DNA from: Cyrtodaria siliqua
Taxonomy: Eukaryota; Mollusca; Bivalvia; Adapedonta; Hiatellidae
Reading direction: 5' to 3'
Length of the DNA: 64,000 nucleotides
Assembly: GCA_037043455.1 (NCBI GenBank)
Contig: JAWPHD010003087.1
Coordinates: 124,001-188,000 of the forward strand
This document shows, piece after piece, positions 4,573 through 62,590 of the stretch; position 1 is the stretch's first letter; each line of letters starts with the position of its first letter. Below the pieces are notes generated by a model. That model made no database searches and was not told the DNA's origin. It worked only from the letters and a program-made list of their open reading frames with translations. The position numbers and the translations under genes were made by a program.

Positions 4573-4762
4573 ATGGAGTGCGTGGTTCAGTGGTAGAGCG
4601 CCGAACTTCAGATCGAAAGGTCGTGGGTTCGATCCTCGCCATGGCCATGTTATTTATCCTTGAGCAAGATAATTGATCCACATTGCTTAGTACTGGTTCT
4701 ACCCAGGAAACCTGCACATAATCTTCGAAAGGGGGTGTTGCAGTATCAATAGATAGATAGAT
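4573..4762 (+). mobile_element. tRNA-derived SINE
   Basis: A tRNA-like head carries an A box (TGGTTCAGTGGTAGAGC, about 4583-4599) and a B box (GGGTTCGATCC, about 4625-4635). The D stem pairs, but the acceptor stem and anticodon stem do not, so it is not a functional tRNA. A body follows with CTTGAGCAAGATAATTGATC and TACTGGTTCTACCCAGG, and a short TAGA tail near 4750. This head-body-tail order is typical of molluscan tRNA-SINEs. Confidence 0.82.
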
Positions 4763-19974: not shown

Positions 19975-22900
19975 TTACTTTCTCCAATCGGTCTGATGAA
20001 GTCTTTGTGGTGGGTTTCTGGGTCGCTGACCCCTCTGCAATGGTGGTGTTTCAGGCGACTTGGGTTCCGTCTGATGAAGTCGTTGTGGTGATTTTCTGGG
20101 TCGCTGACCCCTCTGCAATGGTAGCGTATCACCTGACTTGGGTTCCGCCCTTTTGTTACGCCTCATGGGGATAACATACTTCCTGGACGTTTCTTCCAAT
20201 GATGGATGAACTACAGATGGTTCTGTCATCGTATCGTCTTCCGAACTGCTGTCAGAACTGTCCAAATAACCATCATCTTGGCTTTCGTCTAGACTCTGGA
20301 GTGGAGCTGACCTTGTCTTTGGTCTGGTCCTTCTTGCAGGCATATATTCTGTCTCAGGACAAGGCAAGCCAATGAACGGAAGAAGCATATTCCGATGAAG
20401 AAGCTTTAACTTCGAATGAGGAGCATTTTCGGCTTGTACCTCAAACACAGGAATGTCAAGGATCGGTTGCCGGCGGACAACATATGGCTGGACGTCCCAA
20501 GTATCGGCCAGCTTTTGTTTTCCCTTAAGGCCAACCTTTCGTATAAGTACACGATCACCGGGTTGCAAAACGGCCTCTCTAACCTTCTGATCGTAGTACT
20601 TCTTTTGCTTTTGACCCGCTTTCATGGCTTCTTGAGATGCTTTGTCGTATGCATATGCCAGCCTTGACTTAAGTTTGTCGCAGTAGTCTAGATGACTGGT
20701 ACGCGTCCCCATGTCCGATGGTAAACCAAGGTATGCATCGATAGCAAGTCGTGGATGTCTACCAAACATGAGATAAAATGGAGAGTAGTTGGTACTCTCG
20801 TGCTTAGCAGCATTGTATGCATGTGTCAGGGTTGAAACGTGCGACTTCCAATCTGCTTTCTGCTGATCATCCATTGTACCCATCATGTTTAGAAGTGTCT
20901 GGTTGAAACGTTCAACCATTCCGTTTCCCTGTGGATGGTAAGGGGTTGTTCTGCTTTTCTTTATGCCTGTTATATCGCACAGTTTCTTTATGACTTTCCC
21001 TTCAAAGCACTGTCCCTTATCGCTATGAAGTCTTGCCGGGAAACCGTAATGCACAAAAAAGTTTTCATACAATACGCGGGCAGTAGTAGCTGCTGTTTGG
21101 TTTCTTGTTGGAATGGCTTGTGCATACCTTGAAAAGTGGTCCGTTATTACGAGGATGTTTTCGTACCCGCCTTTTGAGCGTTCCAAAGAGAGGTAATCGA
21201 TACACACAAGTTCCATTGGCGCACTGGATGTAATATTTATCAGCTCTGTAGCTTTTGATGGAGTAACCTTTCTCCGAATGCATCTTCCACACATCTGTAC
21301 CTTGGTCTTGATAAACTTGTCCATACCAGGCCAGTAAAAGCGTTGCTTTATGAGAAATAAGCTGCGATCCCTTCCCTGGTGGCCAAGGTCATTATGATAT
21401 GCGTTGAATATGATATCTCTAAGAGATTCTGGTAACATAAGTTGTTGGTATTCCTCACCATTAACTATGCCATGGTGGTAGAGTACCCCTTTCTGAATAG
21501 ACAACTTGTCCCAAATTCCGAGATATCTAGCATCAATAGCATGTGCATCAAGTTGCGTCTTTGTCGGTTTCTGGCTGTCTACGACACCATTGACAATGTA
21601 ACCAATGTCATGATCAATGGATTGTGCTTTGATCCAGTCTTGTAACGTCAACGATGTCCCACTCACGATGTCCTCTGATAGCGGATCCTCCTGAGCTGCT
21701 ACTATATCATCCGACCCGGTACTAACCAGATTCTCTACAAATGAGAACTCTTCTGAGGTTGCATTAATGGCCTGAGAAATAGCCTTCAGTACCTCTGGAA
21801 ATATGCACTGTTCAGAAGAATCAGAAGAAGGCGACTTTCGTCTCGATAGTCCATCTGCATCGCCATTACTTGTCCCGCATCTGTACTTTATGCTGAAGTT
21901 GTAACTGCAGAGGTCTGATACCCACCGTTGTCTCGTTGCATCGAGCTTAGCCGTAGTCAGTACATAGGTAAGGGGGTTATTATCGGTAACCACCTCAAAT
22001 GTAGCCCCATACAAATAGTCGTGAAACCTGTCGGCCACAGCCCACTTTAAGGCTAAAAATTCCAACTTGTGTGCTGGGTAATTCTTCTCCGCCGGTTTCA
22101 AACTTCGACTTGCGTAAGCAACTACACGACTGATACCATCTTGCTCCTGGTATAGGACTGCTCCGAGTCCGGTACTCGAAGCGTCCGTATGTAGCTTGAA
22201 AGGTCGATCATAGTCTGCATATGCCAACACAGGTGGGTGCGTCAAATTGTAGATTAGTGTTTCAAACGCCTTCTGTTGAGCTTCTGTCCAAACAAACTTT
22301 GTTGGCTTCTTCTTGTTCTTATTCTTTAATGTTTTCTTTCCGGAGTTGCCGATAAGAAGATCGTTTAAAGGCCTGGCAATGCTCGCATATCCTTTTATGA
22401 AGCGGCGATAATACCCCGTGAATCCCAAGAAAGCCCGAACATCCTTTATAGACGTAGGAATAGGCCAGGTTCTGACAGATTCTATCTTCTCTGGATCTGT
22501 CTCAATGCCGTCTTCTGATACCACGTGACCCAGGTAGGTAACTCTGGCCTTAAAGAATTCGCACTTTGATGCCTTTAACTTCAGTCTATGTTGCTGTAAC
22601 CGTTGGAACACAGCCTCTAACCGAGTCAAATGATCCTCAAAGGTTGCGGAGAATATGATGATGTCATCAAGGTAGATTAAACAATCACGGAGATTGAGGT
22701 CACCCATACATCTTTCCATCACCCTTTGGAAGGTCGCAGGCGCATTACATAGACCAAATGGCATACGATTGAACTCGTAAAAGCCAAGAGTTCCTACCTG
22801 GAACGCTGTCTTAGGCTTGTCTTTTTCTTCAATCTCAACCTGCCAATACCCACTGCGCAAATCGAGTTTCGAGAAGTATTTAGCCTTGGCGAGAAGGTGT

Positions 22901-24174
22901 AACGTGTCTTCGACTCTTGGGATGGCATACGCATCTTTCACTGTCCGGTTGTTGAGTTTGCGATAGTCGACGCAAAATCGTATTGTACCGTCTTTCTTTC
23001 GCACAACAACTACGTTTGAAGAAAATGGGCTCTGACTTGGTCGTATGGCATCTGCTTCAATCATCTCATTGAGATGTTCACGGATCTCTTGGAATAACGC
23101 TGGTGGTATGCGACGATGGGCTTCTTTGAATGGCTGTTCGTTATCCAGTTTAATTGTGTGTTTAGTGAGGTCGCACGTTCCTAAATCGGTAAAACTGTTC
23201 GAAAAAATTGATGTCCATTTAGATAGAAAATTTAAAGCTTGTGTTTTCTGATCAGGTGTTAACTTGGAGTCCTCCAACGAGACGTCCTTTGGTAATCCTG
23301 ATGCTTTGTCGCGATGCTCCGTATCTGTTGATGCTAAATGTTGAGACATCGTTGCGCTCGTGCCAGCGTCTATCGGATCAATATTCCTAAGAATTTTAAC
23401 CTCCCGGAGCTCGCATAGGTCTGATCTCGGTTTAATTTCAAGAACCTTCGCTGACATGTTGAAAATCCGAACCGGGACTCGTTGACTATTTCCGGGCTTG
23501 TCTAAAGACACAACACGTGGACAAACACCGATCCGAGTAGATGCTGCTTCTGTCTGCTCGGTTACCGCTGTGTCACTGTCAGTCTTCTTTCGCACAAAGC
23601 CGGAAACAGTGATAACTTCCATTGGTTGAACTCTGATACTGGTATGATTTGTTGACTTGACAACTCCAACGAAATCATTTTGTACAGACACAAAGGCATC
23701 ATTCCATTCCTGGGGAACGTTCTTATCATGCTGGCATATCTCTTTATATGGTCTGATGACGTTCGTTCCTATAACCATTGGAACCGCCAAATTATAATCC
23801 GTAGACGGAACGACCAGTACAGGTACTTCAATATGCATAATGTTTAAGGCGGGAACCTGTATATATCCTTCAATATACCCCAAATATGGAAGTCTATTCC
23901 CATCGGCTCCTTGAAGATTTAACCGTAAATCATCCAATGATGTTAAAGGTGGTAATGGACAAATGGATCGATACAAATCCTCCGACACTGTCGAAACCAT
24001 CGATCCACTGTCAATAAGGGCTGGTGTTTCTATGCCACAGAAAACTACAGAAGACTCATTGGCATGGCCAATTAATCTACTGAAGAGTGCTTTGGGGTTG
24101 GGGCGTGTGTTTTGGTTGTCTCCATGTTGCCCTGGAATGGAGACATCTACATGTTTAACGGTCCCTTTGCCCTT
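19975..24174 (-). CDS. pol: Pol polyprotein of the LTR element (PR-RT-RH-IN)
   Basis: Open from 24174 to 19975, about 1,400 codons; the first ATG is at 24000 but the protease starts before it. The protease active site ALIDSGS straddles that ATG, so translation must enter by frameshift from gag. Counting from 24000: reverse transcriptase with YLDD near residue 445; RNase H with HTDASSTGLG near 610-625; integrase zinc finger (H-H-C-C, HDLGHQGR...CGRC) near 870-905; integrase catalytic acidic residues in CIDYL (about 934), HSDKGQ (about 993) and the Glu of GMVERFN (about 1030); and a GPY/F-like module after that. There is no chromodomain. The C-terminus has a short imperfect repeat rich in PLQRGQRPR. 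No internal stop, so possibly active. Confidence 0.96.
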   Translation of the reverse strand, partial: KGKGTVKHVDVSIPGQHGDNQNTRPNPKALFSRLIGHANESSVVFCGIETPALIDSGSMVSTVSEDLYRSICPLPPLTSLDDLRLNLQGADGNRLPYLGYIEGYIQVPALNIMHIEVPVLVVPSTDYNLAVPMVIGTNVIRPYKEICQHDKNVPQEWNDAFVSVQNDFVGVVKSTNHTSIRVQPMEVITVSGFVRKKTDSDTAVTEQTEAASTRIGVCPRVVSLDKPGNSQRVPVRIFNMSAKVLEIKPRSDLCELREVKILRNIDPIDAGTSATMSQHLASTDTEHRDKASGLPKDVSLEDSKLTPDQKTQALNFLSKWTSIFSNSFTDLGTCDLTKHTIKLDNEQPFKEAHRRIPPALFQEIREHLNEMIEADAIRPSQSPFSSNVVVVRKKDGTIRFCVDYRKLNNRTVKDAYAIPRVEDTLHLLAKAKYFSKLDLRSGYWQVEIEEKDKPKTAFQVGTLGFYEFNRMPFGLCNAPATFQRVMERCMGDLNLRDCLIYLDDIIIFSATFEDHLTRLEAVFQRLQQHRLKLKASKCEFFKARVTYLGHVVSEDGIETDPEKIESVRTWPIPTSIKDVRAFLGFTGYYRRFIKGYASIARPLNDLLIGNSGKKTLKNKNKKKPTKFVWTEAQQKAFETLIYNLTHPPVLAYADYDRPFKLHTDASSTGLGAVLYQEQDGISRVVAYASRSLKPAEKNYPAHKLEFLALKWAVADRFHDYLYGATFEVVTDNNPLTYVLTTAKLDATRQRWVSDLCSYNFSIKYRCGTSNGDADGLSRRKSPSSDSSEQCIFPEVLKAISQAINATSEEFSFVENLVSTGSDDIVAAQEDPLSEDIVSGTSLTLQDWIKAQSIDHDIGYIVNGVVDSQKPTKTQLDAHAIDARYLGIWDKLSIQKGVLYHHGIVNGEEYQQLMLPESLRDIIFNAYHNDLGHQGRDRSLFLIKQRFYWPGMDKFIKTKVQMCGRCIRRKVTPSKATELINITSSAPMELVCIDYLSLERSKGGYENILVITDHFSRYAQAIPTRNQTAATTARVLYENFFVHYGFPARLHSDKGQCFEGKVIKKLCDITGIKKSRTTPYHPQGNGMVERFNQTLLNMMGTMDDQQKADWKSHVSTLTHAYNAAKHESTNYSPFYLMFGRHPRLAIDAYLGLPSDMGTRTSHLDYCDKLKSRLAYAYDKASQEAMKAGQKQKKYYDQKVREAVLQPGDRVLIRKVGLKGKQKLADTWDVQPYVVRRQPILDIPVFEVQAENAPHSKLKLLHRNMLLPFIGLPCPETEYMPARRTRPKTRSAPLQSLDESQDDGYLDSSDSSSEDDTMTEPSVVHPSLEETSRKYVIPMRRNKRAEPKSGDTLPLQRGQRPRKSPQRLHQTEPKSPETPPLQRGQRPRNPPQRLHQTDWRK

Positions 24175-27155
24175 TCAGTTGTTGCTTTTGTTGTAGTAAG
24201 GTTTTCTTTTCTGTCTTGTGTTGTGTCCACTGATTTCTTATTAGCATTATTATTGGCATTCTTTTCTTTCCAACTGGTTGGTGATGGAGATCTTCTGTCT
24301 CTGCCATCTCTAGCCCAGTTCCTTCTTAATGCATTCTCTTTCTTCAACTGTTCCATTTGATTTTCTAAAGATGATAATTTTTTCATTAGTGCATCAAATT
24401 TTGACTCGTCTTTTATGTCGAATGAGACCGTTTTAAGATGTATTCCTGCATTTGCATTTAAATTCATCTCATGTTCTTCCTTTCTGACCTCTCTCCGCAG
24501 CGAATCAAAATCTATGTTCTTTTCAAATTGTATTCGTGTAGCATTCTTTAGCCTATCGTTTATGAGGAACTTCCAAAACTTTGTTCTTAACATATCATTC
24601 TTTGCTTCTTCTTTAACATGACCTTTCTCTATTGCTCTCTGTATAATTTCTTCTAAGCGCAGAGCCCATGCAGTTACATTTTCTCCCTGTTTTTGACGTT
24701 CCGTATAAAATTCTTGCAATACACTTTCTCCAGTTGCAACATTTCCAAATACTCCTTCCAACTTGGCCACCATCGTTTCCATACCCGCAGTGGGTCCAAG
24801 TGGTAAGAGTACCCGCTTAGCCTGTCCTTTTAATGATCGTCTTATTCCTTGTGCAATCATATATTCTGGATACATCTTGCCTTCTCTTACGCAGCTCACT
24901 TCGTATTTCCATTCCTCGAACGTCACTTCGTTTTTCGGCTTGGGCTCTTCGCCCGAGAAAATGGAAAATTTTGTCATGAATGGCTTATCCTTAAAAGATG
25001 TATTGTCTTTGGCATTATCTTCTACACTTTGTTCCTTCCTTTCCGTTGTTATGTCTTGTGCACCACTTAAGTGTTCCTTGGCTTGGTTTACACTGTCAGA
25101 TCGTGGTGACTCCAGAATTAGTTTCTCCTTCTTACACAGCTCAATTTCTTTTTGAAGTAATTGTTCTTCTTTCAACTTCAGTTCATGTTCTTGTTTTTCA
25201 GCTACGGTATGTTTTGTATCTTCAAATTCTTGTTTCACTTTTATTGATATACTCGCATCCTCTCTTCGTCTTAATTCATGCTCACGTTTAACTAAGTTCT
25301 CCTCTCTAATGTTAAGTTCACGCTCTCTATCACTAATTGTTTGTTCCTTGTCTCGGTTTACAATGTCACATCGTGGTGACTCCAGAATTAGTTTCTCCTT
25401 CTTACACAGATCTATATCCTTTTGGACCAATTGTTCTTCTTTCAACTTCAGTTCATGTTCTGTTTGTTCAGCTACGGTTTGTTTTGTGTCCTCTAATTCT
25501 TGTTTTACTTTTACTGCCATACTCGCGTCCTCTCCTCGTCTCAATTCATACCCACGTTTAACTAAGTGTTCCTCTCTAATATTCTGCTCACGGTCTCTAT
25601 CACTAATTGTGTCTCTCATATATTGATCCCTCTCCAGCATCTGTGTATTTCTTCTTTCGCATTCTCCTATAACTCGCCCTATCTCACTATCTCCTGTGCT
25701 GTCGATATGCTTTAATTCACCTCTCTGGGAACTAAAACTGTATCTAAGCCTCTCCTCCTCTTTTGCTAACTGCTTTAATCGTTCTCTAAAATTCTCTTCC
25801 TCTTTAACTTTAAACAAAATACTAGCTTCCAGTCTTGTTTCTTCAGCTAAGATCTCCTTAAATCTTTCCTTTCTTTTTCTCTCCTCTTCTAGAAGGATGT
25901 TTTGCTTCTTCATCCGTTCTATTCTTTCCTTTAGCTCTCGTTCTGCCTCATTGTGTTTTTGTCTATCATGCTCCATTCTCTGTTCTTGTATCCTCAAGTA
26001 TTCAATTCTTTTGAGTTTCTTTACTTCTTCTTCATCTATCAATATGTCTTGCTCTGAATGACTCTCGCGTATGTTACTTGTTATTCTACTTTTGTTCTGA
26101 CGTGTCATAGTTTCCTTTCTTCTTTTACTGTGGTTGGTCTCATCTATTAGTGCTTCAGATTCCGCTCTGCTACCAACTCCCCTATTCATATCTTGTTCAT
26201 ATGTCGTCATTCTGTTTCTCTCTTCTTTATCTAGCCGTAGTTGATCAGTGTATTCTCTATCTAATATACTATCTGTCACACTATTTCGTTTCGTAGATTT
26301 TCTTTCCATACGCTCTCCTTCATCTGCCAGATTACCCTTATATGTTTCATAGTATTCCCGATCTAACTCCCTGCCTAGCATATTCTCTTCATCTAGGTCA
26401 GTACAATCTTTCATCGTTCTACTTCTTCTTGTATCGTATCTATCAAAAGGTTCATTATATCCTCTATACTGCCTTTTCTGTAAGTCTCTACTTATAGGGC
26501 TCCTATCTATGAAGTTATCTCTTACTGGAGACTCCATTGGTCCATTCCTATATATCCTTTCTGAACCCTGGATTCCAAGCCTCCGTTCAATATTACTGAT
26601 ACTTTTACTTAATATCCTCTGTGTATGTTCGGTATCTGTCTCTTTCTGCTTATGACTGCCTTCAATGCCATCTAATTCTAATGACTTTCTAGCTGGTATA
26701 CTATCCGCAATAGTGGTACATTCAGCTGAGCCTCGTGTTGGATTTGCCTCAGTTCCCGTTGTATGTATTTTTCCTCTCGACTCCTTGTAGGCACTACCAT
26801 ATCCTAAGTTCCTTAATTCCAACTCTAATTCCTTTAATTCCTTCAATAAAGGTTCACTAGACAAACCACTTATGCTCTTAGGACTGTTGTGATCCTTTTC
26901 GTGTTCTCCTATTACATGAGTACTACTTAAAGGATCCAAATTCATACTCTTTCTGCTCATTGCACTTCCGGGAACATCTTGATTTTCATCCATATCGATT
27001 TCAGAATTATCAAACGATGTGTTACACTCTAACTGTAGTCTTTCTTCTCGATTCTTATTTCTTTCCTTTAGAACTTCTTCCCGTTGCTGTTTTATTTCAT
27101 ATATCTCCTTCTCTATCCCCTCTCTGTATTTCCCATATTTCTTTGGTCTAGCCAT
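24147..27155 (-). CDS. gag: Gag of the LTR element: long coiled coil plus PNMA-like capsid region
   Basis: About 1,002 residues from ATG 27153-27155 (context GCCATGG). An in-frame TTG-started extension to 27200 is unlikely. Residues 1-740 are highly charged and Glu/Arg/Lys-rich with long predicted coiled coils. They include two tandem copies of a 90-residue unit (about 515-604 and 605-694; DNA period 270 bp), each ending in KKEKLILESPR. Residues about 745-895 (FEEWKYEV to RKEEHEM) resemble the capsid region of PNMA/Gypsy Gag. No CCHC zinc knuckle is visible; the tail is Lys/Asn-rich and basic, which may bind RNA instead. Most Gypsy Gags are 300-500 residues, so this is unusually long. Role: particle assembly and RNA packaging. 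Antisense open frames in this span are shadows. Confidence 0.92.
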   Translation of the reverse strand: MARPKKYGKYREGIEKEIYEIKQQREEVLKERNKNREERLQLECNTSFDNSEIDMDENQDVPGSAMSRKSMNLDPLSSTHVIGEHEKDHNSPKSISGLSSEPLLKELKELELELRNLGYGSAYKESRGKIHTTGTEANPTRGSAECTTIADSIPARKSLELDGIEGSHKQKETDTEHTQRILSKSISNIERRLGIQGSERIYRNGPMESPVRDNFIDRSPISRDLQKRQYRGYNEPFDRYDTRRSRTMKDCTDLDEENMLGRELDREYYETYKGNLADEGERMERKSTKRNSVTDSILDREYTDQLRLDKEERNRMTTYEQDMNRGVGSRAESEALIDETNHSKRRKETMTRQNKSRITSNIRESHSEQDILIDEEEVKKLKRIEYLRIQEQRMEHDRQKHNEAERELKERIERMKKQNILLEEERKRKERFKEILAEETRLEASILFKVKEEENFRERLKQLAKEEERLRYSFSSQRGELKHIDSTGDSEIGRVIGECERRNTQMLERDQYMRDTISDRDREQNIREEHLVKRGYELRRGEDASMAVKVKQELEDTKQTVAEQTEHELKLKEEQLVQKDIDLCKKEKLILESPRCDIVNRDKEQTISDRERELNIREENLVKREHELRRREDASISIKVKQEFEDTKHTVAEKQEHELKLKEEQLLQKEIELCKKEKLILESPRSDSVNQAKEHLSGAQDITTERKEQSVEDNAKDNTSFKDKPFMTKFSIFSGEEPKPKNEVTFEEWKYEVSCVREGKMYPEYMIAQGIRRSLKGQAKRVLLPLGPTAGMETMVAKLEGVFGNVATGESVLQEFYTERQKQGENVTAWALRLEEIIQRAIEKGHVKEEAKNDMLRTKFWKFLINDRLKNATRIQFEKNIDFDSLRREVRKEEHEMNLNANAGIHLKTVSFDIKDESKFDALMKKLSSLENQMEQLKKENALRRNWARDGRDRRSPSPTSWKEKNANNNANKKSVDTTQDRKENLTTTKATTERAKGPLNM
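24153..24159 (-). promoter_or_regulatory. Candidate -1 ribosomal frameshift site GTTAAAC
   Basis: Minus strand reads CCG TTA AAC ATG TAG at the end of gag. G TTA AAC is a known -1 slippery heptamer type (used in arteriviruses). A -1 slip gives AAA CAT GTA GAT, entering the pol frame one codon before the gag stop. The pol frame is closed upstream by TGA at 24175-24177, so the overlap is only about 28 bases and this is its only good slippery site. Any downstream stimulatory structure was not folded. Confidence 0.75.
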
Positions 27156-28895
27156 GGCACTAGGTTCCTTTAAATCAATTTCAGAGCAACACAACCACAA
27201 TACAACCCCAAACCGATCAAACCGAAATAACTCAACACAAACACCACTTCGAAAAACACCGTAACATAAAACAACACTATGAAATCACAACACAATATAC
27301 CACAAACGAGTTGGAACAACGACAAAAAAAAATAAAAAATAAAAATTCTACCATCGAGGTTTGAACTCACAACACTCCACAAAACTCTCTACAATCCAGA
27401 AAACTATCAGCTGAAAAGACGACCGCTTAACCGACTGCGCTAATGACGCGAGTTACTTATATCTCACCTGTAGACGTATACATTACCAATACGTATACTA
27501 CAGGTCTATATATAAGGTATAACGGTGTTTTCCTTTAATAGTTTCCAGAAAAATAGAACAAGTTCATGTTTAGAACACAAAATGCTCAAGAATGGGATTT
27601 TGGGAACTAGTTCTCGTTGAAATACTAAAATTCCGCGATGGTCGACTACAAAAATACCGTAAAAAAACAAACAAATGCCGCGAAGTATCAACAGTAATTT
27701 CTTTGGAATGCCTACTTCAAAGATAATTACGTTTCTTTACTATGTTACGACCGAGATAACCGTAAACAAATTTACTCAAACACAACAGGAGAACTTATTT
27801 TCCTAGTGTGTTTGTGTTGTCAGTACCTATAAATTATAAACATGCATACTCAATGCACGTTTATCTTTTATATATTCAAATACGAAAACTTCTAATATAA
27901 ATTTAACGTCTCAATATTACTGAGAGGTGAATTTTATATACTGCCGATGACTGGGTTTGAACCGGGGGCCCTCGGTTACAAATCCAATGCTCTATTCACT
28001 GCGCTACGCCGCTTTTACAATTTGTATGGTCAAATTTTAACTCTTATCGGCTTTACCAGTAAGATTAGGAAATTGGCTATTTGTTTACCCCTATATGGAC
28101 CATAAAAGGAGTTGTCAGTTAATAAGTATTAGTAGCATGCAATAATGAGCGTGAGCTACCGCGCAGGGAAGAACATGTATTCTAGGCTATCACTTTAACG
28201 GCAATGGTTTACCTCTTACAATATGTCACTATATCAACGGTGTATAACTACTACTATAATATAAGTACACACAACATAACTGACAGAATGTACGTCGTAT
28301 AGATAGCTATTCCTCGTGGTTTTGCACGACGCGCTGTGTACCAAATAACCCGATCGCACGTAGATCGTCACTTATATTGTGTACTACTTATTTAAGACAA
28401 TATATGCAAAAACATACAAAAACAATTATTACATATACTTTGGAGACTACAAGATAACAAATGAAGGTCTTACCCCGATAATCCTAATAATCCAACATAA
28501 TAACACATAAATAATAAACACATCCATGTCACTGTCACTTAAAATTTATACACACATCCTTGTCACTGTCATTTAAACATAATACACACGATCATATAAA
28601 TGATCCAAGTCACTGATCATAAAAATGATCTAGTTCTCTCAACTTCTGAAGTCCGCGAAACTTCGTAAAGTCCTGTCTGTTTCCTCTATCCACGTGTCCG
28701 TACGGTTCTTGTTTCTGTGTGCACAGTTGTCATCTCCGTCTAAATGTTGTTTGTAAACACCGATCGGCCATAACTCCCGTGACGTCATCATTCCAAAACT
28801 TCCATATCATACATAAGGCAAAGACACATGATCCATCCTTTCAAATCACTATATGAGGTCCAACTCGAAATGCCCGATACCACAATGGCCACCAA
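27156..28895 (-). other. Long 5' leader of the LTR element
   Basis: 1.74 kb between the 5' LTR and gag, long for a Gypsy leader and without an ORF. It contains two tRNA-like segments (27350-27450 and 27941-28015) that look like captured SINE or tRNA fragments. A primer-binding site is expected just inside the LTR: TGGTGGCCATTGTGG (minus strand, about 28880-28894) begins with the usual TGG, but I could not match it confidently to a tRNA. Confidence 0.65.
27941..28015 (-). other. tRNA-like segment inside the LTR-element leader
   Basis: Minus strand has an A-box-like TAGCGCAGTGAATAGAGC and B-box-like CGGTTCAAACCC with a TTTGTAA putative anticodon loop (Thr-like). The anticodon and acceptor stems do not pair properly, so it is a tRNA relic or SINE head, not a working tRNA. 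A second weaker one, with A box TAGCGCAGTCGGTTAAGCGG and B box GAGTTCAAACC, lies at about 27350-27450. Confidence 0.55.
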
Positions 28896-29938: not shown

Positions 29939-32900
29939 TCAATTTACCGCTTGTCCAACACTCCATATTAAATGGAAAGCGTTAATAACAACTTTTAAAC
30001 AAGTCAAATTGCATTTATCGCTAAGTGGTCTCATACCATTTAGCATGACAATTATTTGTTCCCGCGGACTTAAGTTTATGAATATGTTAAATACATTTGA
30101 ACCAACAATGGTAAAAATTGACTGCCACAATTTAACTGAAATATGTTTAGTACGAACACAATAAAAAATATAGTGTTCTGAGATAGATGAAACTTGTCTT
30201 TCACACCGGGGGCAACTTTTGGTATAAGAGTCACTAAATAATTTACATAATAGACATATTGCACTTTTGCATTTAGTCGTGTATTTTGGTTGCGCTTTAG
30301 AAAATTCCCATAACTCACAAGCATGACTAAGCATTGGTTTTATGCACAAAAAGTCTCTTAAAGAGCAATCATTATTTACTCTGAATGACCACTCAGTTTC
30401 TGCCATTGTACACACACTGTTTTTTATCATGCGCTTCCAAGTAAATTTCGAAGGAAATACACCAGAAATTCTGAATTCATTTAAAACATTGAGAAGTGAA
30501 TACTTCCTTAAAATACGATAGATTTCTGGTATGTATCCTCTCTGATGCGATGGATTTTCGATAAAATGTAATAGTCTATAAATAAAGACCTCTCTTACTA
30601 CATGTGGACATATTGAACGGCATAATTGTCCTAAAAATAGAAGCTTACGAGTGTCAATTTCGCTCTCAATTGATTTAGCACCTATCAAACTAAGACATAT
30701 ATCAGTTCTCGTCTGAGTAGGAATTGATTGCATATATTTTATGCAGAATCGATGCGATCGTTCCAACATTAACATATCACTTTTTGTCATGTCATACCAC
30801 TGTTCGCAACCATACAGGGCTTTTGGAATTACAACGGACTTATATATTTTCATTGATGTTATAGGGTGAAGACCATCTTCATGTAGACCAGCATTTATCA
30901 AACCTAAAAATGCACCTCTTAATTTACGGCAGGATTCTTTGATACTGCCCTGTATATCCATGTATTTATTACAAATAACGCCTAGATGTGTATAATTTAT
31001 AGTTTCGACGACAGGTTCATTACCAATTTTCCATGTTCTATTTTTGTTTTCGAATTCAAACTTTGTCTCATTAAACACTATCACGGAACATTTACTTGCA
31101 TTATATTTAAATCTCCATTTAGTTGCATAGTCATTACATATGGACATCATTTTGTCCAGGCCTAGTTTTGAAAATGACACGAGAACCATATCATCCGCAA
31201 CAGTTAAACAACTAAAATTAATGTTGACAAGACAAAAGCCAAGACCCGAGTCTTCAATTTCTGATATTAAGCCATTAATATATGCAAGATAGAGGAAAGG
31301 GCTACTGACTCCTCCCTGTCTTGTTCCCTGCCGTACACGAAGCGTTTCAGATACATTGCCATTACATCGAACACGACTTGTTACATTATTATACATATCA
31401 ATTATGGCTTTGTAAGTTGTAGGATCTATGTTAAATTCATTCAGTTTAAAGAAAAGGCCATTATGCCATAATCTATCAAACGCCTGTCTTGAGTCATTTA
31501 ATCCGACATACAATTTGCTTTTATTTTCCTTAGCAAAATAAATGCTTTCACGAAATGTAAAAGATGTCATTAAGCATCCCAAGTCTTTTTGAAAACCCCC
31601 TTGAAGATGGTTAATATGTATTTTGTTTTCATTTGCTAAGCGGGACAATAACACCCTTTCATATAATTTCATGAATGGTGATGACAGAGTTATCGCCCTG
31701 TAGTTATTAGGATCCCTATGATCTTTTTTCCCACCTTTAAATAGTGTTATGATTATACCGCATTTCATCTTTTCGGGAGCGTGCGCTAATTTCAACATTG
31801 CCGTGAGCAAGTTTGCTATCAGCTGTTTAACTATTACACCGGCATGAATAATATGTTCATAGTATATTTTGTCCTCGCCACAAGCTTTGTTTCGTTTCGC
31901 CAGCCTTAGAAAATAATTAATATCCGCTACTGAGATTGGTATTAAATCGCATACATTATAATTACTTAATTCTACGTTCTTTGAGTGTACTGTCTCATTA
32001 ACATGTTGAAAAAATGCACTATCGAAATTGGAATCGTCATCGACAGAGTACAAATCACTAAAGTAATTACGCCAACCCGACAATATGTCTATTGGATTTC
32101 TAGATAGTATTTCATTAAAGTTCATTTCAGTACCGGGGGCAGTACATGATTTTTTCCGTCTAGCGTTTACTAAGTTCCAAAATAAATCTTGGTCAATCTC
32201 AGCAGCTTCGTCTATTTCAAGATTTAGCTTAACCATATACTGATCAACAGCATATCTATGTTGACATCTAAACTCGCGTTTTGCTTCTTTATAATTAAAG
32301 TATGATAAACCGTTTCTCGGTTTTCCATTACTCAGCCATATCATTCTTTTATTTTTCATGTTATTATGATAACAATTCAGTTGTTTATTCCAATAAGGCT
32401 TTAAGTGACGCCTGAATTTAGCTTTTGGCAAACATACAGTGGATGCATTTAAAATCCTTGTGACCAATAAGTCATACAATTGATATATGTCTGATTTAGA
32501 AGTCAAAGCCAAGTCCTTAGCGTTTTTAAGGATTGGGTCATTTTCAAGGAATATTTCATACTCTTTTAAAATGTCCACTGGTACTTTGGACCATTTAATA
32601 CGCTGACCACTCTCAGTGCTAGGGGTGATTCTTTCATAACTCGGAAATAAGAGAGTACATAAAATAGGACGATGATTGGAGAAACTTAAAGAACCGTCGT
32701 CTAATATTTGACAGTCAGAAGCATAATCTATTTTATCTGTTGGTAGTAAAATATGGTCTATAAGGCTCTCACCATTTTTAGATACAAAACTTGAAATTGC
32801 ACCACTGCATAATGGCAAAGTATTTATAGATGTAAATCTGTTTTCGAGCATAAACTCATTAAACACATACCCTCTATCGTCAAGACGCTTATTATATTTA

Positions 32901-33388
32901 TAGGAATTGAGGTGTACATTTAGATCACCCATGAAAACTACAAAGCCTCTTTCTGAATAAGCATGTATCAAATCTGAAAGTTTATCTACATATTCCCTAA
33001 ATATGGCACTACAGTGGTTCTTACTTGGTAAATACACTTGAAATATGAACACGTACACGTTGGTACTTACTTCTAATTGTATACCGATAATCCTATCATC
33101 GTCAATTGGTAATGTGGATATTCTACTCGTATACTTAATATTCCACAAAATGGCTACACCCCCCTTTCCTACTTTACGATTACTTGGAAGTTTTAGATCG
33201 TTATCACATACAGAATGACATACATACATATTATCATTTTTGCTCAAAAAATGAAGATCTTTCTGATAAAGCCAGTGCTCCGATACTCCACATATGTCAA
33301 CTGAGTACTTGTTTAAAGTATCACTGAGATATGTACAACTTGACATAATACCAGTAACATTCCATGACATTAGTCTTAGCATTGCCAT
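29939..33388 (-). CDS. LINE ORF2: apurinic endonuclease plus reverse transcriptase
   Basis: 1,149 residues, no internal stop, ATG at 33386-33388. The N-terminus is an APE-type endonuclease: SWNVTG near residue 8, SEHWL (catalytic Glu), GDLNVH and the terminal SNHRPI (His). The reverse transcriptase follows: PNNYRAITLSS, RQGTRQGGVSSPFLY, and the catalytic ADD at about residues 730-732 (TVADDMVL). The C-terminal region has a CCHC finger, C-x2-C-x9-H-x4-C (CPRCERQ...EHYIFYC), near residue 1065. It nicks target DNA and copies its own RNA there. The endonuclease type and microsatellite tail point to the CR1/Jockey side of the LINE tree; the exact clade needs a tree. The ORF is intact although the element is 5'-truncated. 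Confidence 0.95.
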   Translation of the reverse strand: MAMLRLMSWNVTGIMSSCTYLSDTLNKYSVDICGVSEHWLYQKDLHFLSKNDNMYVCHSVCDNDLKLPSNRKVGKGGVAILWNIKYTSRISTLPIDDDRIIGIQLEVSTNVYVFIFQVYLPSKNHCSAIFREYVDKLSDLIHAYSERGFVVFMGDLNVHLNSYKYNKRLDDRGYVFNEFMLENRFTSINTLPLCSGAISSFVSKNGESLIDHILLPTDKIDYASDCQILDDGSLSFSNHRPILCTLLFPSYERITPSTESGQRIKWSKVPVDILKEYEIFLENDPILKNAKDLALTSKSDIYQLYDLLVTRILNASTVCLPKAKFRRHLKPYWNKQLNCYHNNMKNKRMIWLSNGKPRNGLSYFNYKEAKREFRCQHRYAVDQYMVKLNLEIDEAAEIDQDLFWNLVNARRKKSCTAPGTEMNFNEILSRNPIDILSGWRNYFSDLYSVDDDSNFDSAFFQHVNETVHSKNVELSNYNVCDLIPISVADINYFLRLAKRNKACGEDKIYYEHIIHAGVIVKQLIANLLTAMLKLAHAPEKMKCGIIITLFKGGKKDHRDPNNYRAITLSSPFMKLYERVLLSRLANENKIHINHLQGGFQKDLGCLMTSFTFRESIYFAKENKSKLYVGLNDSRQAFDRLWHNGLFFKLNEFNIDPTTYKAIIDMYNNVTSRVRCNGNVSETLRVRQGTRQGGVSSPFLYLAYINGLISEIEDSGLGFCLVNINFSCLTVADDMVLVSFSKLGLDKMMSICNDYATKWRFKYNASKCSVIVFNETKFEFENKNRTWKIGNEPVVETINYTHLGVICNKYMDIQGSIKESCRKLRGAFLGLINAGLHEDGLHPITSMKIYKSVVIPKALYGCEQWYDMTKSDMLMLERSHRFCIKYMQSIPTQTRTDICLSLIGAKSIESEIDTRKLLFLGQLCRSICPHVVREVFIYRLLHFIENPSHQRGYIPEIYRILRKYSLLNVLNEFRISGVFPSKFTWKRMIKNSVCTMAETEWSFRVNNDCSLRDFLCIKPMLSHACELWEFSKAQPKYTTKCKSAICLLCKLFSDSYTKSCPRCERQVSSISEHYIFYCVRTKHISVKLWQSIFTIVGSNVFNIFINLSPREQIIVMLNGMRPLSDKCNLTCLKVVINAFHLIWSVGQAVN

Positions 33389-33430
33389 TTTAACTAGTTA
33401 TAAATGGTACTTTTTATGAGTAGACACTGC

Positions 33431-42850: not shown

Positions 42851-42908
42851 AAAATGCTGATTTTGTGTTTTAAAACTTATATATATATTGTAAAAAGGCC
42901 AGTTAAAC

Positions 42909-43054
42909 ACACTGTACTGTGTGTGACCTACGTTAACCACGCTGTACTGTGTGTGACCTACGTTAACCACGCTGTACTGTGTGTGACCTACGTTAACCAT
43001 GCTGTACTGTGTGTGACCTACGTTAACCACGCTGTACTGTGTGTGACCTACGTT
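42909..43054. repeat. 30-bp minisatellite, five copies
   Basis: Unit CTGTACTGTGTGTGACCTAC followed by GTTAACCACG. Copies differ at one or two bases. Because 30 is divisible by three it keeps frames open on both strands. Confidence 0.95.
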
Positions 43055-43329
43055 CCTTACTTTGTTGAGTCATACGCTCACGCTCCATACCAGTTTAAAA
43101 AGGTTCTAGATCTATTAGATTCAAACTGCTTTAATATTGATGAGCACACCGCATCATATGCAAAGGTAGGCCGACGTACGCCTGACCAGCATCGACTTAC
43201 GTTTAATTCCTAGCACGCTATTTCAATATTGTTTTATTACACATGGTATGATACTCCACCAAGTCACACTATACTGACACCGGACCGACCAGTCCTAGCA
43301 CTACTCTTTATATGGTGAACGCCAAACAA

Positions 43330-46300
43330 GGGAACAGCTAGTTCCATTTGTATGAAGTTGTTGGTTTGACCCGGCTAGGGATCAGCAACGGAACTTCTAG
43401 TATCATCTGTATGAAGTTGTTGGTTTGACCCGGCCGGGGACAAGCAAGAAAACTTCTAGTACCATTTGTATGAAGTTGCTGGTTTGACACGGCCGGGGAC
43501 AAGCAAGAAAACTTCTAGTACCATTTGTATGAAGTTGCTGGTTTGACACGGCCAGGGATCAGCAAGAGAACTTCTAGTACCATTTCATCCATTTGTATGA
43601 AGTTGCTGGTTTGACACGGCCGGGGACAAGCAAGAAAACTTTTAGTACCATTTGTATGAAGTTGTTGGTTTGACCCGGCCATGGACGAGCAACGGAACTT
43701 CTAGTACCATTTGTATGAAGTTGTTGGTTTGACCCGGCCAGGGATCAGCAACGGAACTTCTAGTAACATGTGTGTGAAGATGTTGGATTGACCCGGCCAG
43801 GGTCCAGCAAGGGAACTTCTAGTACTATGTGTGTGACGTTATTGGATTGACCCGGCCAGGGATCAGCAAGGTAACTTCTAATATCATGCGTGTGAAGTTG
43901 TTGGTTTGACCCGGCCAGGGATCAGCAGCGGAACTTCTAGTACCATTTGTATGAAGTTGTTGGTTTGACCCGGCCAAGGATCAGCAAGAGAACTTCTAGT
44001 ACCATTTCATCCATTTGTATGAAGTTGTTGGTTTGACCCGGCCAGGGATCAGCAACGGAACTTCTAGTACCATTTGTATGAAGTTGTTGGTTTGACCTGG
44101 CCAGGGATCAGTAACGGAACTTCTAGTACCATTTGTATGAAGTTGTTGGTTTGACCCAGCCAGGGATCAGCAGCGGAACTTCTAGTACCATTTGTATGAA
44201 GTTGTTGGTTTGACCCGGCCAGGGATCAGCAAGAGAACTTCTAGTACCATTTGTATGAAGTTGTTGGTTTGACCCAGCCAGGGATCAGCAGCGGAACTTC
44301 TAGTACCATTTGTATGAAGTTGTTGGTTTGACCCGGCCAGGGATCAGCAACGGATCTTCTAGTACCATTAATATGTGTATGAAGTTGTTGGTTTTACCTG
44401 GCCGAGGGCAAGCAAGGAAACGTCTAGTACCATTTGTGTGAAGCTGTTGGTTTGACCCGGCCAGGGATCAGCATGGAAACTTCTAATACCATTTGTATGA
44501 AGTTGTTGGTTTGACCCGGCCAGGGATCAGCAACGGAACTTCTAGTAACATGTGTGTGAAGATGTTGGATTGACCCGGCCAGGGTCCAGCAAGGGAACTT
44601 CTAGTACTATGTGTGTAACGTTATTGGATTGACCCGGCCAGGGATCAGCAAGGTAACTTCTAATATCATGTGTGTGAAGTTGTTGGTTTGACCCGGCCAG
44701 GGATCAGCAACGGAACTTCTGGTATCATTTGTGTGAAGTTGTTGGTTTGACCCGGCCAGGGATCAGCAACGGAACTTCTAGTACCATTTGTGTAAAGTTG
44801 TTGGTTTGACCCGGCCAGGGATCAGCATAGGAACGTCTAGTACCATTTGTATGAAGTTGTTGGTTTCACCCGGCCAGGGACCAGCAACGGAACTTCTAGT
44901 ACAATTAATATTTGTATGAAGTTGTTGATCTGACCCGGCCAGGGATCAGCAAGGGAACTTCTAGTACCATTTGTATGAAGTTGTTGGTTTGACCCGGCCA
45001 GGGATCAGCAAGGGAATTTCTAATACCATTTGTATGAAGTTGTTGGTTTGACCCGGCCAGGGATCAGCAACGGAACTTCTGATATCATTTGTGTGAAGAT
45101 GTTGGTTTGACCTGGCCAGGGATCAGCAACGGAACTTCTAGTACCATTTGTGTGAAGTTGTTGGTTTGACCCGGCCAGGGATCAGCAACGGAACGTCTAG
45201 TACCATTTGTATGAAGTTGTTGGTTTCACCCGGCCAGGGACCAGCAACGGAACTTCTAGTACAATTAATATTTGTATGAAGTTGTTGATCTGACCCGGCC
45301 AGGGATCAGCAAGGGAACTACTAGTACCATTTGAATGAAGTTGTTGGTTTGACCCGGCCAGGGATCAGCAACGGAATTTATAATACCATTTGTATGAAGT
45401 TGCTGGTTTGACCCGACCAGGGATCAGCAAGAGAACTTCTAGTACCATTTGTATGAAGTTGCTGGTTTGACCCGGCCAGGGATCAGCAGCGGAACTTCTA
45501 GTACCATGTGTATGAAGTTGTTGGTTTGACCCGGCCAGGGATCAGCAAGAGAACTTCTAGTACCATTTCATCCATTTGTATGAAGTTGTTGGTTTGACCC
45601 GGCCAGGGATCAGCAACGGAGCTTCTAGTACCATTTGTATGAATTTGTTGGTTTGACCTGGCCAGGGATCAGCAACGGAACTTCTAGTACCATTTGTATG
45701 AAGTTGTTGGTTTGACCCAGCCAGGGATCAGCAAGATAACATCAGTACCATTTGTATGAATTTGTTGGTTTGACCCGGCCAGGGATCAGCATAGGAACTT
45801 CTAGTACCATTTGTATGAAGTTGTTGGTTTGACCCGGCCAGGGATCAGCAGCGGAACTTCTAGTACCATTTGTATGACGTTGTTGGTTTGACCCGGCCAG
45901 GGATCAGCAACGGAACTTCTAGTACCATTTGTATGAAGTTGTTGGGTTGACCCGACCAGGGATCAGCAGCGGAACTTCTAGTACCATTTGTATGAAGTTG
46001 TTGGTTTGACCCGGCCAGGGATCAGCAACGGAACTTCTAGTACCATTTGTATGAAGTTGTTGGTTTGACCCGGCCAGGGATCAGCAGTGGAACTTCTTGT
46101 ACCTTTTGTATGAAGTTGTTGGTTTGACCTGGCCAGGGATCAGCAGCGGAACTTATAGTACTATGTGTATGACGTTGTTGGTTTGACCCGGCTAAGGATC
46201 AGCAAGGGAACTTCTAGTATCATTTGTGAAGTTGTTGGTTTGACCCGGCCAGGGATCAGCAGCGGAACTTCTAGTACCATTTGTATGAAGTTGTTGGTTT

Positions 46301-46794
46301 GACCTGGCCAGGGATCAGCAAGGGAACTTCTAGTACTATGTGTATGACGTTGTTGGTTTGACCCGGCTAAGGATCAGCAAGGGAACTTCTAGTATCATTT
46401 GTGATGTTATTGGTTTGACCCGGCCAGGGATCAGCAACGGAACTTATAGTACCATTTGTGTGAATTTGTTGGTTTGACCCGGCCAGGGATCAGCAAGGGA
46501 ACGTCTAATACCATTTGTGTGAAGTTGTTGGTTTGACTCATCCAGGGATCAGCACCGGAACTTCTAGTACCATTAATATTTGTATGAAGTTGTTGGTCTG
46601 ACCCGGCCAGGGATCAGTAAGGGAACTTCTAGTACCATTTGTATGAATTTGTTGGTTTAACCCGGCCAGGGATCAGCAAGGGAACTTCTAATACCATTTG
46701 TATGAAGTTGCTGGTTTGACCCGGCCAGGGATCAGCAACGGAACTTCTAGTACCATTTGTATGAAGTTGTTAGTTTGACTCGGCCAGGGATCAA
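43330..46794. repeat. 59-bp minisatellite, about 58 units
   Basis: Unit (plus strand) contains TTTGTATGAAGTTGTTGGTT then TGACCCGGCCAGGGATCAGC. A few units carry insertions (CCATTTCATCCATTTG or CCATTAATATTTG). Multi-unit blocks recur: 43764-43900 again near 44546-44690 (about 780 bp, 13 units), and 44830-44940 again near 45195-45300 (about 360 bp, 6 units). So the array also grew by larger duplications. Confidence 0.95.
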
Positions 46795-46850
46795 GCCCGC
46801 GACATTCCGCATCCGAGCTGGAAGCTCTACCAATACGCCACCGTCGCGGA
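46785..46850 (-). other. tRNA-like head of the expanded SINE
   Basis: Minus strand GCGACGGTGGCGTATTGGTA, GAGCTTCC..GGAA stem, and GGGCTTGATCCC. It is the internal polymerase III promoter type used by SINEs. Not a functional tRNA, because its stems are incomplete. Confidence 0.75.
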
Positions 46851-47404
46851 TCAAGACAAAACTGTTTATTGTGTGGTATTCAAATTCCATATGCGGCTGC
46901 ACATTCAGAAGAGAATGTCCCTTTAAACTTTAAATAATATTTGTCTACAAGGTAAGACTGGCACTTTGCTTAGGGTAGAACTCAAATTTTGAAGTATTTG
47001 TTTAGCGATAAGCACTCGTATGAAAATGCAAATTAACCAGACGGTGTGCGTCAACCTGTATGATAACCTATTCAAGTAAGTGTTTGTGGGACTCGGTTTA
47101 ACAACATTACGTTTGTTTTGGCAATTTAAAGCCATGATGATAAATAAGGGTTTACACAAATTACTGATAATAAAACACACTCGAGAGAAATGTGTTTGTA
47201 CAGTATATTTTGTCATGGGGCCATAACTATTATTCGTACTTTTTTAGTAATGTATATGTCTGTATAATAGGTATTATAAATCGAACACAGCCTACATTAT
47301 ATATATATAAGGAATCGACTTGAACTTTTCACCCAATTCACCCAAAGGAAAAGCAATATGGCATTGAATATGCAACGAAATTTAGCGAAAGCCCTTCTCC
47401 TCGT
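46851..47404. other. Gene-free stretch
   Basis: AT-rich with short open frames only (for example 46923-47216 minus, no recognisable content). Confidence 0.5.
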
Positions 47405-50395: not shown

Positions 50396-50767
50396 TTATT
50401 GAACGAATGACCTCCATTTCACAAGGTTGGTTGGTGGAATTCCGATTTTCTTTTTTTTGTTGTCCGTAACGCGGCTAAAGAAGAACCCACAGGTCGGCTT
50501 TTCGACAGTTGCGAACGGCGCCAGAGAATTTGAAAGTTTGATCTCGCCGTTAGGTCCAATCACGTATCTATTTGTACTAGACAATGGCATACCGTCAAGC
50601 GAACTTCTCTGTTCATTTGGCTGGAATCTTTGAAAATGGCGGGAATATCTTTCCGGTCCCAGGTTTAACTTTTTCAGCCGAAGAAACTCCAATCGCTCCC
50701 AATTGACAGTCCGTGGGTTTGGATTAAACCGCACCTGGTGCTGTACCGTCTCAGTGTTGTCGCTCAT
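50396..50767 (-). CDS. Uncharacterised small protein, paralogue of the ORF at 61920-62375
   Basis: 123 residues from ATG 50765-50767. This start is chosen because it aligns with the start of the second copy; an in-frame ATG at 50803 would add 12 residues. Basic and soluble, no signal peptide or membrane segment. It shares with its paralogue FNPNPRT, LKKLNLG, RFQ, LSN-LAPFAT, a Cys-x2-FF-R-TDNK segment and a WRS near the C-terminus, roughly half the residues over about 110 positions. The poly(A) signal AATAAA (minus, 50395-50400) overlaps the stop. No function recognised. Protein-level conservation between the copies argues that both are, or recently were, real genes. No upstream exon was identified. 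Confidence 0.65.
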   Translation of the reverse strand: MSDNTETVQHQVRFNPNPRTVNWERLEFLRLKKLNLGPERYSRHFQRFQPNEQRSSLDGMPLSSTNRYVIGPNGEIKLSNSLAPFATVEKPTCGFFFSRVTDNKKKKIGIPPTNLVKWRSFVQ

Positions 50768-51005
50768 GGTCCGCGATTTCTCAGACCGATCGGTTAAAGA
50801 CATAGCATAAATCCCTTAAGGGATAACGTAGTTCCCTTTTTGCGTTGCTAACCGAAATAGAGCGACACCCGACTTGTGTAATACACGTATCGTAGTATGT
50901 ATCGGGTTACTAAGAAAAATCGATATGGTCTTCGTGTTGATCAATCGGATAGTGATATTGGATTATCTCCTATTGTTGCGCCCTCTAGTGCCCTGGACTA
51001 GGCAT
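50768..51005 (-). promoter_or_regulatory. Upstream region conserved with the paralogue
   Basis: Blocks shared with 62376-62590: AGTATGTATCGGGTT-CTAAGAAAA (plus strand, from about 50894) and TTGTTGCG-N6-GTGCC-TGGA (about 50973-50998). Order and spacing to the start codon are alike in both, as expected for a duplicated promoter. The second block weakly resembles an RFX X-box half-site pair; that is speculative. Confidence 0.5.
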
Positions 51006-61919: not shown

Positions 61920-62375
61920 CTACTTGCATTTTTGATCGAAACGAACACATTTTGCATCGCACATTTTGCATTTGTCCTCTAAACGTTTTGTATTTACACC
62001 TCTTGTGTATGTTGATCTCCATCTTGCCAGGTCGACTGCTTCAATGTCGGTTTTCCTTATCTTGTTGTCCGTCTCCCTGTTGAAGAAGGTTCCACAGAAT
62101 GGCCTTATGAGAGTTGCGAATGGCGCCAGGGTATTTGAAAGTTGGTTAAAACCGTCAGGTCGAATTACGTGTTTAGTTCTGCATGGCGATAGCATACCAT
62201 CATGCCAGCTTCTCTGGTCATTTGTTGATTGGAATCTTTGAACATGGCGGATATATCTTTTATGTCCCAGGTTTAACTTTTTCAGCCGCTTAACCTCCAA
62301 TATCTCCCAACTGATAGTCCGTGGGTTCGGATTAAACCCTAACTGGTGCAGGAACACGTCGTTATTGTCGCCCAT
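61920..62375 (-). CDS. Uncharacterised small protein, paralogue of the ORF at 50396-50767
   Basis: 151 residues from ATG 62373-62375. The frame is open further up, but only with non-ATG starts, and this ATG aligns with the paralogue. Shared segments are FNPNPRT, LKKLNLG, RFQS, LSNTLAPFAT, a FF-R-TDNK segment and WRS. It carries about 30 extra C-terminal residues with four Cys (CKMCDAKC...KC) that the other copy lacks. Basic, no signal peptide or membrane helix. Function not recognised. The two genes are 11.6 kb apart in the same orientation, so a local duplication is likely. A plus-strand frame at 61966-62241 is the shadow. Confidence 0.65.
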   Translation of the reverse strand: MGDNNDVFLHQLGFNPNPRTISWEILEVKRLKKLNLGHKRYIRHVQRFQSTNDQRSWHDGMLSPCRTKHVIRPDGFNQLSNTLAPFATLIRPFCGTFFNRETDNKIRKTDIEAVDLARWRSTYTRGVNTKRLEDKCKMCDAKCVRFDQKCK

Positions 62376-62590
62376 TGTCTGTGAAAATTCGCAGAGCAAT
62401 CGGTTAAAGCTATAACAGACAGTTCGTGGGTAACGAACTACCCTTTTTGGGTAGCACCAGAAGCTGAGCGATGCCAAACCCTACTTGCTTAGTATGTATC
62501 GGGTTGCTAAGAAAAGCAATATGGCTTTACTGTCAGACCAACCTAACAATTGTTGCGACGTCACGTGCCATGGATACGGGAAACACGGTG
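62376..62590 (-). promoter_or_regulatory. Upstream region conserved with the paralogue
   Basis: AGTATGTATCGGGTTGCTAA (about 62491) and TTGTTGCG-N5-ACGTGCCATGGA (about 62550-62573) align with the region upstream of 50767 in order and spacing. GACGTCAC within the second block is CRE-like. Confidence 0.5.

What the first reader, a model, noticed from the sequence alone, without database searches (positions are those of the whole stretch)
43244..46850. A SINE that turned into a satellite: 59-bp body segment amplified about 58-fold between its own head and tail
The tRNA-like head, the 59-bp unit and the SINE 3' domain lie in the right order and orientation, and the unit's first bases continue the B-box region of the head. 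This catches a satellite in the act of arising from a transposon, with higher-order duplications (about 780 and 360 bp) on top. The head's polymerase III promoter would read straight into the array.
Basis: partly seen in the sequence, partly recalled or inferred. Interest (0 to 1): 0.8.

Follow-up and report, generated by a model that had tools for sequence, protein, structure and literature searches.

The report
SINE segment expanded into tandem array
In a bivalve genome, one old copy of a short mobile element (a SINE) has had a 59-base piece of its middle copied 58 times in a row; it is a clear case of a known process, and some other copies of the same element have been stretched at other places.

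Summary
A 59-bp unit repeats 58 times at 43327-46793, between a tRNA-like SINE head (minus strand, 46850-46793) and the SINE's next domain (to about 43240). In 68 of 77 sampled copies, head, one copy of the segment and the 3' domain run uninterrupted; none of the 77 has the 59-bp array. The unit is SINE positions 54-111 (50 of 58 bases), starting inside the B box. So the array arose from the SINE body.

Two parts are overstated. It is one locus, not a dispersed satellite: all 32 genome matches to the unit junction at 0-1 mismatch lie here. It is not exceptional: 7 of the 77 copies hold arrays of other segments (units 26-61 bp, up to 52 copies), a rate not clearly above the minisatellite background (7 seen, 3.7 expected, p 0.08). 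Likely mechanism: tandem duplication in place. Closest precedents: snake sSat3 (PMC10702118) and limpet PcH-sat (PMC11121367). Transcription is untested.

The parts
46793..46850 (-). tRNA-like SINE head; A box TGGCGTATTGG (46840-46830); 5' half of the B box at its inner edge
   Evidence: 38 of 46 positions to the SINE consensus; dispersed copies match head plus first unit
43327..46793 (-). array of 58 units of 59 bp; unit = SINE consensus positions 54-111
   Evidence: junction found at 0-1 mismatch only here in the assembly (32 of 32)
43240..43326 (-). SINE 3' part (consensus positions 111-197); the rest of the 3' end is missing
   Evidence: 77 of 87 positions to consensus; genome copies match this stretch joined to one unit
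44629..45548 (-). higher-order duplication, shift 360 bp (44629-45188 and 44989-45548)
   Evidence: 94.8% identity; 6-unit lag, 23 of 500 shuffles as strong; 7 of 60 in the cruder test
43696..44789 (-). higher-order duplication, shift 782 bp (43696-44007 and 44478-44789)
   Evidence: 96.8% identity; 13-unit lag, 15 of 500 shuffles as strong; 38 of 60 in the cruder test

Best explanation
An old copy of a tRNA-derived SINE in a bivalve genome, lacking its 3' end, underwent a tandem duplication of its body segment (consensus positions 54-111, starting inside the B box). The duplicate then grew in place, by unequal exchange and/or replication slippage, including multi-unit block duplications, to 58 units. 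It is a SINE-internal minisatellite at one locus. The same happens independently to other copies of this SINE at other segments, as part of the genome's general tendency to form minisatellites. Shown: identity of unit and SINE segment, single copy in ordinary elements, order and orientation, restriction of this junction to one locus, arrays of other segments at other loci. Inferred: the molecular mechanism and its timing.
For: 68 of 77 sampled loci have head, one segment and 3' domain in one alignment, and none of the 77 has the 59-bp array. The unit matches positions 54-111 at 50 of 58. Seven other loci have arrays whose units map to other contiguous SINE segments: L090 125-173 (x52), L029 151-194, L049/L027 151-203 (x20), L067 169-215 (x27), L034 202-227 (x13), L016 204-260, L021 226-267; in L090 and L034 the SINE head and 3' end flank the array. 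In L095 a 40-bp x6 array has a unit made of 5' flank plus the first bases of the SINE (7 bp by alignment, about 10 by eye), which suggests amplification of genomic DNA after insertion there. All 32 genome matches to the unit junction at 0-1 mismatch are in this array. Collinear blocks of units recur.
Against: No consistent microhomology at the segment borders: 0-3 bp, judged by eye on the consensus printed, so the starting event is not identified. Single-strand folding of the units is unremarkable (8 array units, z from -1.89 to +0.74), though a two-unit stretch as RNA had z -2.81. Block duplications are only moderately beyond shuffles, and not in a cruder test. No reads or second haplotype were available; the search for an allelic copy by flank did not complete.
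Confidence: 0.9

Rival explanations
1. A composite mobile element with an internal repeat block (SVA-like) spreads by retrotransposition, and this is one of its copies.
For: Head and 3' domain frame the array, as in a composite element.
Against: The junction occurs at 0-1 mismatch only at this locus (32 of 32); none of 77 other copies has it; the seven other SINE arrays use other segments. A copy with a more diverged junction would have been missed.
Confidence: 0.04
2. The multimer formed during transcription or reverse transcription (template slippage) and was inserted already repeated.
For: Not excluded directly for this locus; no target-site duplication or empty site could be read.
Against: L095 suggests that a unit can cross from flank into the SINE; arrays outside the SINE are common in this genome (42 in 255 kb); block duplications imply later growth in place.
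Confidence: 0.06
3. The array is an unrelated minisatellite that happens to lie between SINE fragments.
For: The genome is rich in minisatellites.
Against: The unit equals the SINE segment that belongs exactly between these two flanks.
Confidence: 0.01
4. Assembly artefact: the unit number is inflated.
For: No reads were available; the assembly has 26,948 contigs.
Against: Units differ from each other (mean identity 0.86), which over-expansion of identical units would not give; similar arrays occur on other contigs.
Confidence: 0.05

Closest known systems
Snake sSat3 (Squam3-derived satellite), PMC10702118 (read: abstract, Background, Discussion, the section on orthologous loci, part 1 of 3 of Results)
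   Same: Tandem unit covers the box-B part of the tRNA-like head plus part of the body (67 nt there, 59 bp here); terminal units run out into the SINE; locus-specific subvariants of the unit. The paper also reports an uncommon form with both SINE termini around the repeats.
   Different: Another SINE and another phylum; in most snakes sSat3 loci can number in the thousands, here this unit has one locus.
Gecko sSats (same paper, same sections)
   Same: Different segments of one SINE family amplified, as at the seven other loci here.
   Different: Other SINE families; there each variant occupies many loci, here each segment was seen at one locus in the sample.
PcH-sat of the limpet Patella caerulea, linked to a Nin-SINE, PMC11121367 (passages read)
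   Same: Mollusc satellite whose 179-bp unit holds a SINE segment (118 bp).
   Different: Abundant (about 10% of the genome) and mainly pericentromeric; its SINE part lacks boxes A and B; no single-locus form flanked by SINE head and 3' part appears in the passages read.
Helitron-associated repeats of oysters (Cg170/HindIII, CvA), PMC11136912 (passages read)
   Same: Bivalve transposon with an internal tandem array.
   Different: DNA transposon whose central repeats belong to the element; here a retroposon and one locus.
SVA elements (recalled, not searched)
   Same: SINE-related parts around a repeat block.
   Different: SVA is a mobile family; this junction has one locus.

Membership tests
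tRNA-derived SINE | tRNA-like head with A and B boxes | tested here: met
   A box 1 mismatch, B box 3 of 11 mismatched in this copy; head 38 of 46 to the consensus of dispersed copies. ARAGORN and Rfam find no tRNA here
tRNA-derived SINE | dispersed copies with a common body and 3' end | tested here: met
   77 sampled loci and a 321-bp consensus
tRNA-derived SINE | target-site duplication flanking the copy | tested here: not met
   no exact repeat above 7 bp around this copy; the copy lacks its 3' end, so this says little about the family
tRNA-derived SINE | LINE-derived 3' end | not tested
   no partner LINE was compared; the window copy lacks the end of the element
SINE-derived tandem repeat (sSat, as used in PMC10702118) | at least four middle monomers derived from a SINE segment | tested here: met
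   58 units mapping to SINE 54-111
SINE-derived tandem repeat (sSat, as used in PMC10702118) | terminal unit extended into the SINE terminus | tested here: met
   head on one side; on the other the 3' part, only to position 197
Satellite DNA proper | the same unit at many loci or in very long arrays | tested here: not met
   one locus of 3.5 kb
Satellite DNA proper | subtelomeric or centromeric location | not testable with these tools
   contig C3087, no chromosome placement given
SVA-like composite retroposon | several insertions sharing the repeat block | tested here: not met
   0 of 77 loci
MetaSINE / V / Deu superfamilies | named conserved central domain | not testable with these tools
   the papers I looked up were not held; a search of papers for sequence strings returned 0

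The most novel reading that the evidence does not exclude
In this bivalve a single SINE family is being turned into minisatellites copy by copy: about one sampled copy in eleven (7 of 77) has its own internal array, the eight segments seen so far (window included) together cover positions 54-111 and 125-267 of the 321-bp element, and the window array is the longest of those read. That would make this family a series of independent starting points for testing how satellites begin.
Probability: 0.45. Interest if true: 0.55.

Novelty: new member of a known kind. Interest (0 to 1): 0.42.

Why it matters
PMC10702118 calls the earlier SINE-satellite examples it examined inconclusive, describes loci with both SINE ends as uncommon, and leaves open whether the phenomenon is confined to squamates; PMC11121367 then linked a limpet satellite to a SINE. 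[quoted passage not shown] It also bears on mechanism: segments and borders differ each time, and the rate is close to the background of minisatellites, which argues for a general genomic process rather than a property of the SINE.

Tried and rejected
Rejected: a chance minisatellite, and a mobile VNTR-SINE. I considered microhomology at the duplication ends; the borders printed for all eight arrays show 0-3 bp by eye, so I dropped it. Hairpin-driven expansion: a two-unit stretch as RNA had z -2.81, the head -0.38, but single units as DNA did not stand out. SINE as a preferred site: 7 seen against 3.7 expected, p 0.08; first sample alone 5 against 1.7, p 0.03; second alone 2 against 2.0, p 0.60. 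The first sample was found with a query covering SINE positions up to 197, so it may favour arrays of that part. L034 fell outside the SINE by the automatic 50% rule, so it sits both in the 42 background arrays and, by hand, in the 7; L095 is in the background count. L072 has a 23-bp x3.2 repeat inside the SINE and L021 a second one of 39 bp x2.1, both below my four-copy limit and not counted. Rfam gave nothing in 43000-47300 at E up to 1; ARAGORN found no tRNA gene. Scans of viral contigs, prokaryote genomes and plasmids gave no relative (the one hit, in a bacterial contig, I took for a chance match and did not examine). The C3143 array (54-bp unit) shows no SINE head at the edge that I read.

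Full report
What is there. TRF finds a 59-bp unit repeated 58.0 times at 43327-46793, 87% matches. On the minus strand the sequence reads: tRNA-like head (46850 to 46793), 58 units, then a 3' domain (43326 to about 43240). The first unit begins in the middle of the B box. Of the 58 units 47 are exactly 59 bp; mean pairwise identity is 0.86. Two block duplications (360 and 782 bp) are visible, with moderate support: rare shared variants as strong in 23 and 15 of 500 shuffles, identity runs as strong in 7 and 38 of 60 shuffles. No exact flanking repeat longer than 7 bp was found.

The window lies on contig C3087 of a 2.88-Gb assembly with 26,948 contigs. The host is a bivalve, judging by a neighbouring CIMIP3 gene, whose best named match is Mactra antiquata (71% identity). 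Each genome search scores only its best 40 candidates, of 1429 and 116, so the sample is of the copies most like this one. I took all 39 non-home loci listed with the 3' side of the element as query (fetched) and all 39 non-home places listed with head plus first unit (38 loci, two places sharing one). They are not fully independent: L060 and L068 share flanks and L059 and L066 lie on one contig. An alignment of 20 of the 77 with the window gave the consensus (tidied). In 33 of 39 and 35 of 38 loci one alignment runs from the head through a single body segment into the 3' domain; in the other nine (L017, L021, L025, L032, L045, L046, L070, L073, L081) it is truncated, split or interrupted. None of the 77 has a 59-bp body array; L077 has ten body copies because a whole SINE lies in a tandem unit of about 605 bp, and L082 has two separate SINEs. 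The unit corresponds to consensus positions 54-111, 50 of 58 identical. The proposed origin therefore survives the test that could have refuted it.

How widespread. The unit junction (21 bases) was searched in the whole assembly with up to 3 mismatches: 125 matches, 100 of them listed. All 32 at 0-1 mismatch are in this array. At 2 mismatches 15 are here and 12 lie on C3862 (2) and C7487 (10), where the spacing is not 59 bp. Of the 41 listed at 3 mismatches 5 are here; the rest are on C405, C3143, C4993 and C7487. The search recovers 52 of this array's joints in the list, which serves as its positive control; arrays of the same segment with another joint or more divergence would be missed. The C3143 array has a 54-bp unit and no SINE head at the edge that I read. 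So the 59-bp repeat has, as far as tested, one locus, and is better called a minisatellite inside a SINE than a satellite.

Sister loci. Seven of the 77 other copies carry an internal tandem array of at least four units, each of a different stretch: L090 (positions 125-173, 45 bp x 52), L029 (151-194, 44-54 bp x about 9), L049, which contains L027 (151-203, 56 bp x 20), L067 (169-215, 47 bp x 27), L034 (202-227, 26 bp x 13), L016 (204-260, 61 bp, at least 8.6 copies, running off the fetched stretch) and L021 (226-267, 42 bp x 5). L090 and L034 show the SINE head on one side and its 3' end on the other. In L095 a 40-bp x 6 array has a unit of flanking DNA plus the first bases of the SINE (7 by alignment, about 10 by eye). 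If that short overlap is real, the array ignores the element's border and formed in genomic DNA after insertion.

Is the SINE special? Outside SINE sequence I counted 42 arrays (unit at least 20 bp, at least 4 copies) in 255 kb of non-array DNA; at that rate 3.7 would be expected in the 22.6 kb of SINE sequence examined, against 7 seen (Poisson p 0.08). The two samples differ (5 against 1.7; 2 against 2.0). I conclude that the SINE is hit at about the background rate, or up to twice it.

Mechanism. The evidence supports tandem duplication of a segment in an existing copy, followed by growth through unequal exchange or slippage; this last step is inference. The borders show 0-3 bp of microhomology on the consensus (by eye) and the units do not fold unusually as single-stranded DNA, so neither explains the choice of segment. 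The units differ from the family consensus (82.6% identity) at least as much as other copies do (86.3% over 68 body matches; the consensus was made from 20 of those loci, which flatters them), so a recent origin is not shown; homogenisation within the array could blur this either way.

Transcription. The head keeps an A box with 1 mismatch; its B box differs from the consensus used at 3 of 11 positions, and 3-mismatch B boxes occur 46 times on the minus and 44 times on the plus strand of the element, with 2 better ones on the plus strand. The sense strand has no TTTT until 43638. Read-through is possible, but no expression data were available.

Comparison. Snake sSat3 has a 67-nt unit made of the box-B part of the head plus body, and the same paper mentions uncommon loci with both SINE ends around the repeats (PMC10702118; sections read). 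The limpet PcH-sat contains a Nin-SINE segment (PMC11121367, passages). Many oyster satellites are linked with Helitrons (PMC11136912, passages). In the listings of five searches (14 papers; 2; 4; 0; 12 shown of 71) I recognised no earlier report of SINE-derived arrays in bivalves; the library holds only open-licence PMC papers, and the two molluscan SINE papers that I looked up are not held. The case is a new member of a known kind.

Noticed in passing
L077 (C567:416000-422000): A whole SINE lies inside a tandem unit of about 605 bp, ten copies in 6 kb.
   Followed up: partly
L095:2209-2448: Array of 6 units of 40 bp, each made of flank plus the first bases of a SINE head.
   Followed up: partly
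C7487:103636-106200 and C3862:48675-48821: Repeats spaced 42 bp (126 bp on C3862) that resemble the SINE B-box region; the letters could not be fetched.
   Followed up: no
L018, L020, L024: Minisatellites of 33, 39 and 52 bp end within about 35 bp of the SINE 5' end.
   Followed up: no
window 4582-4635, + strand: A second tRNA-head-like stretch followed by a different sequence.
   Followed up: no
window 42902-43054: A 30-bp x 5.1 array lies just beyond the SINE 3' part.
   Followed up: no
window 1-64000: Seven further minisatellite arrays by my criteria; with the 59-bp array they cover 9.9 kb of the window.
   Followed up: partly
window 19975-27284, - strand: Retroelement frames: a 1045-aa frame with a PNMA (gag-like) domain and a 1399-aa frame with reverse transcriptase, RNase H and integrase domains.
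   Followed up: no
window 29939-33397, - strand: Non-LTR-type frame of 1152 aa with endonuclease and reverse transcriptase domains.
   Followed up: no
window 50396-50815 and 61920-62480, - strand: Two CIMIP3-like frames about 11 kb apart.
   Followed up: partly
L060 and L068: Two contigs share the same flanking arrays: a segmental duplication or an uncollapsed haplotype.
   Followed up: no
L032: An insertion of about 150 bp between SINE head and body, with a short repeat of SINE sequence on both sides, looks like another element inserted there.
   Followed up: no
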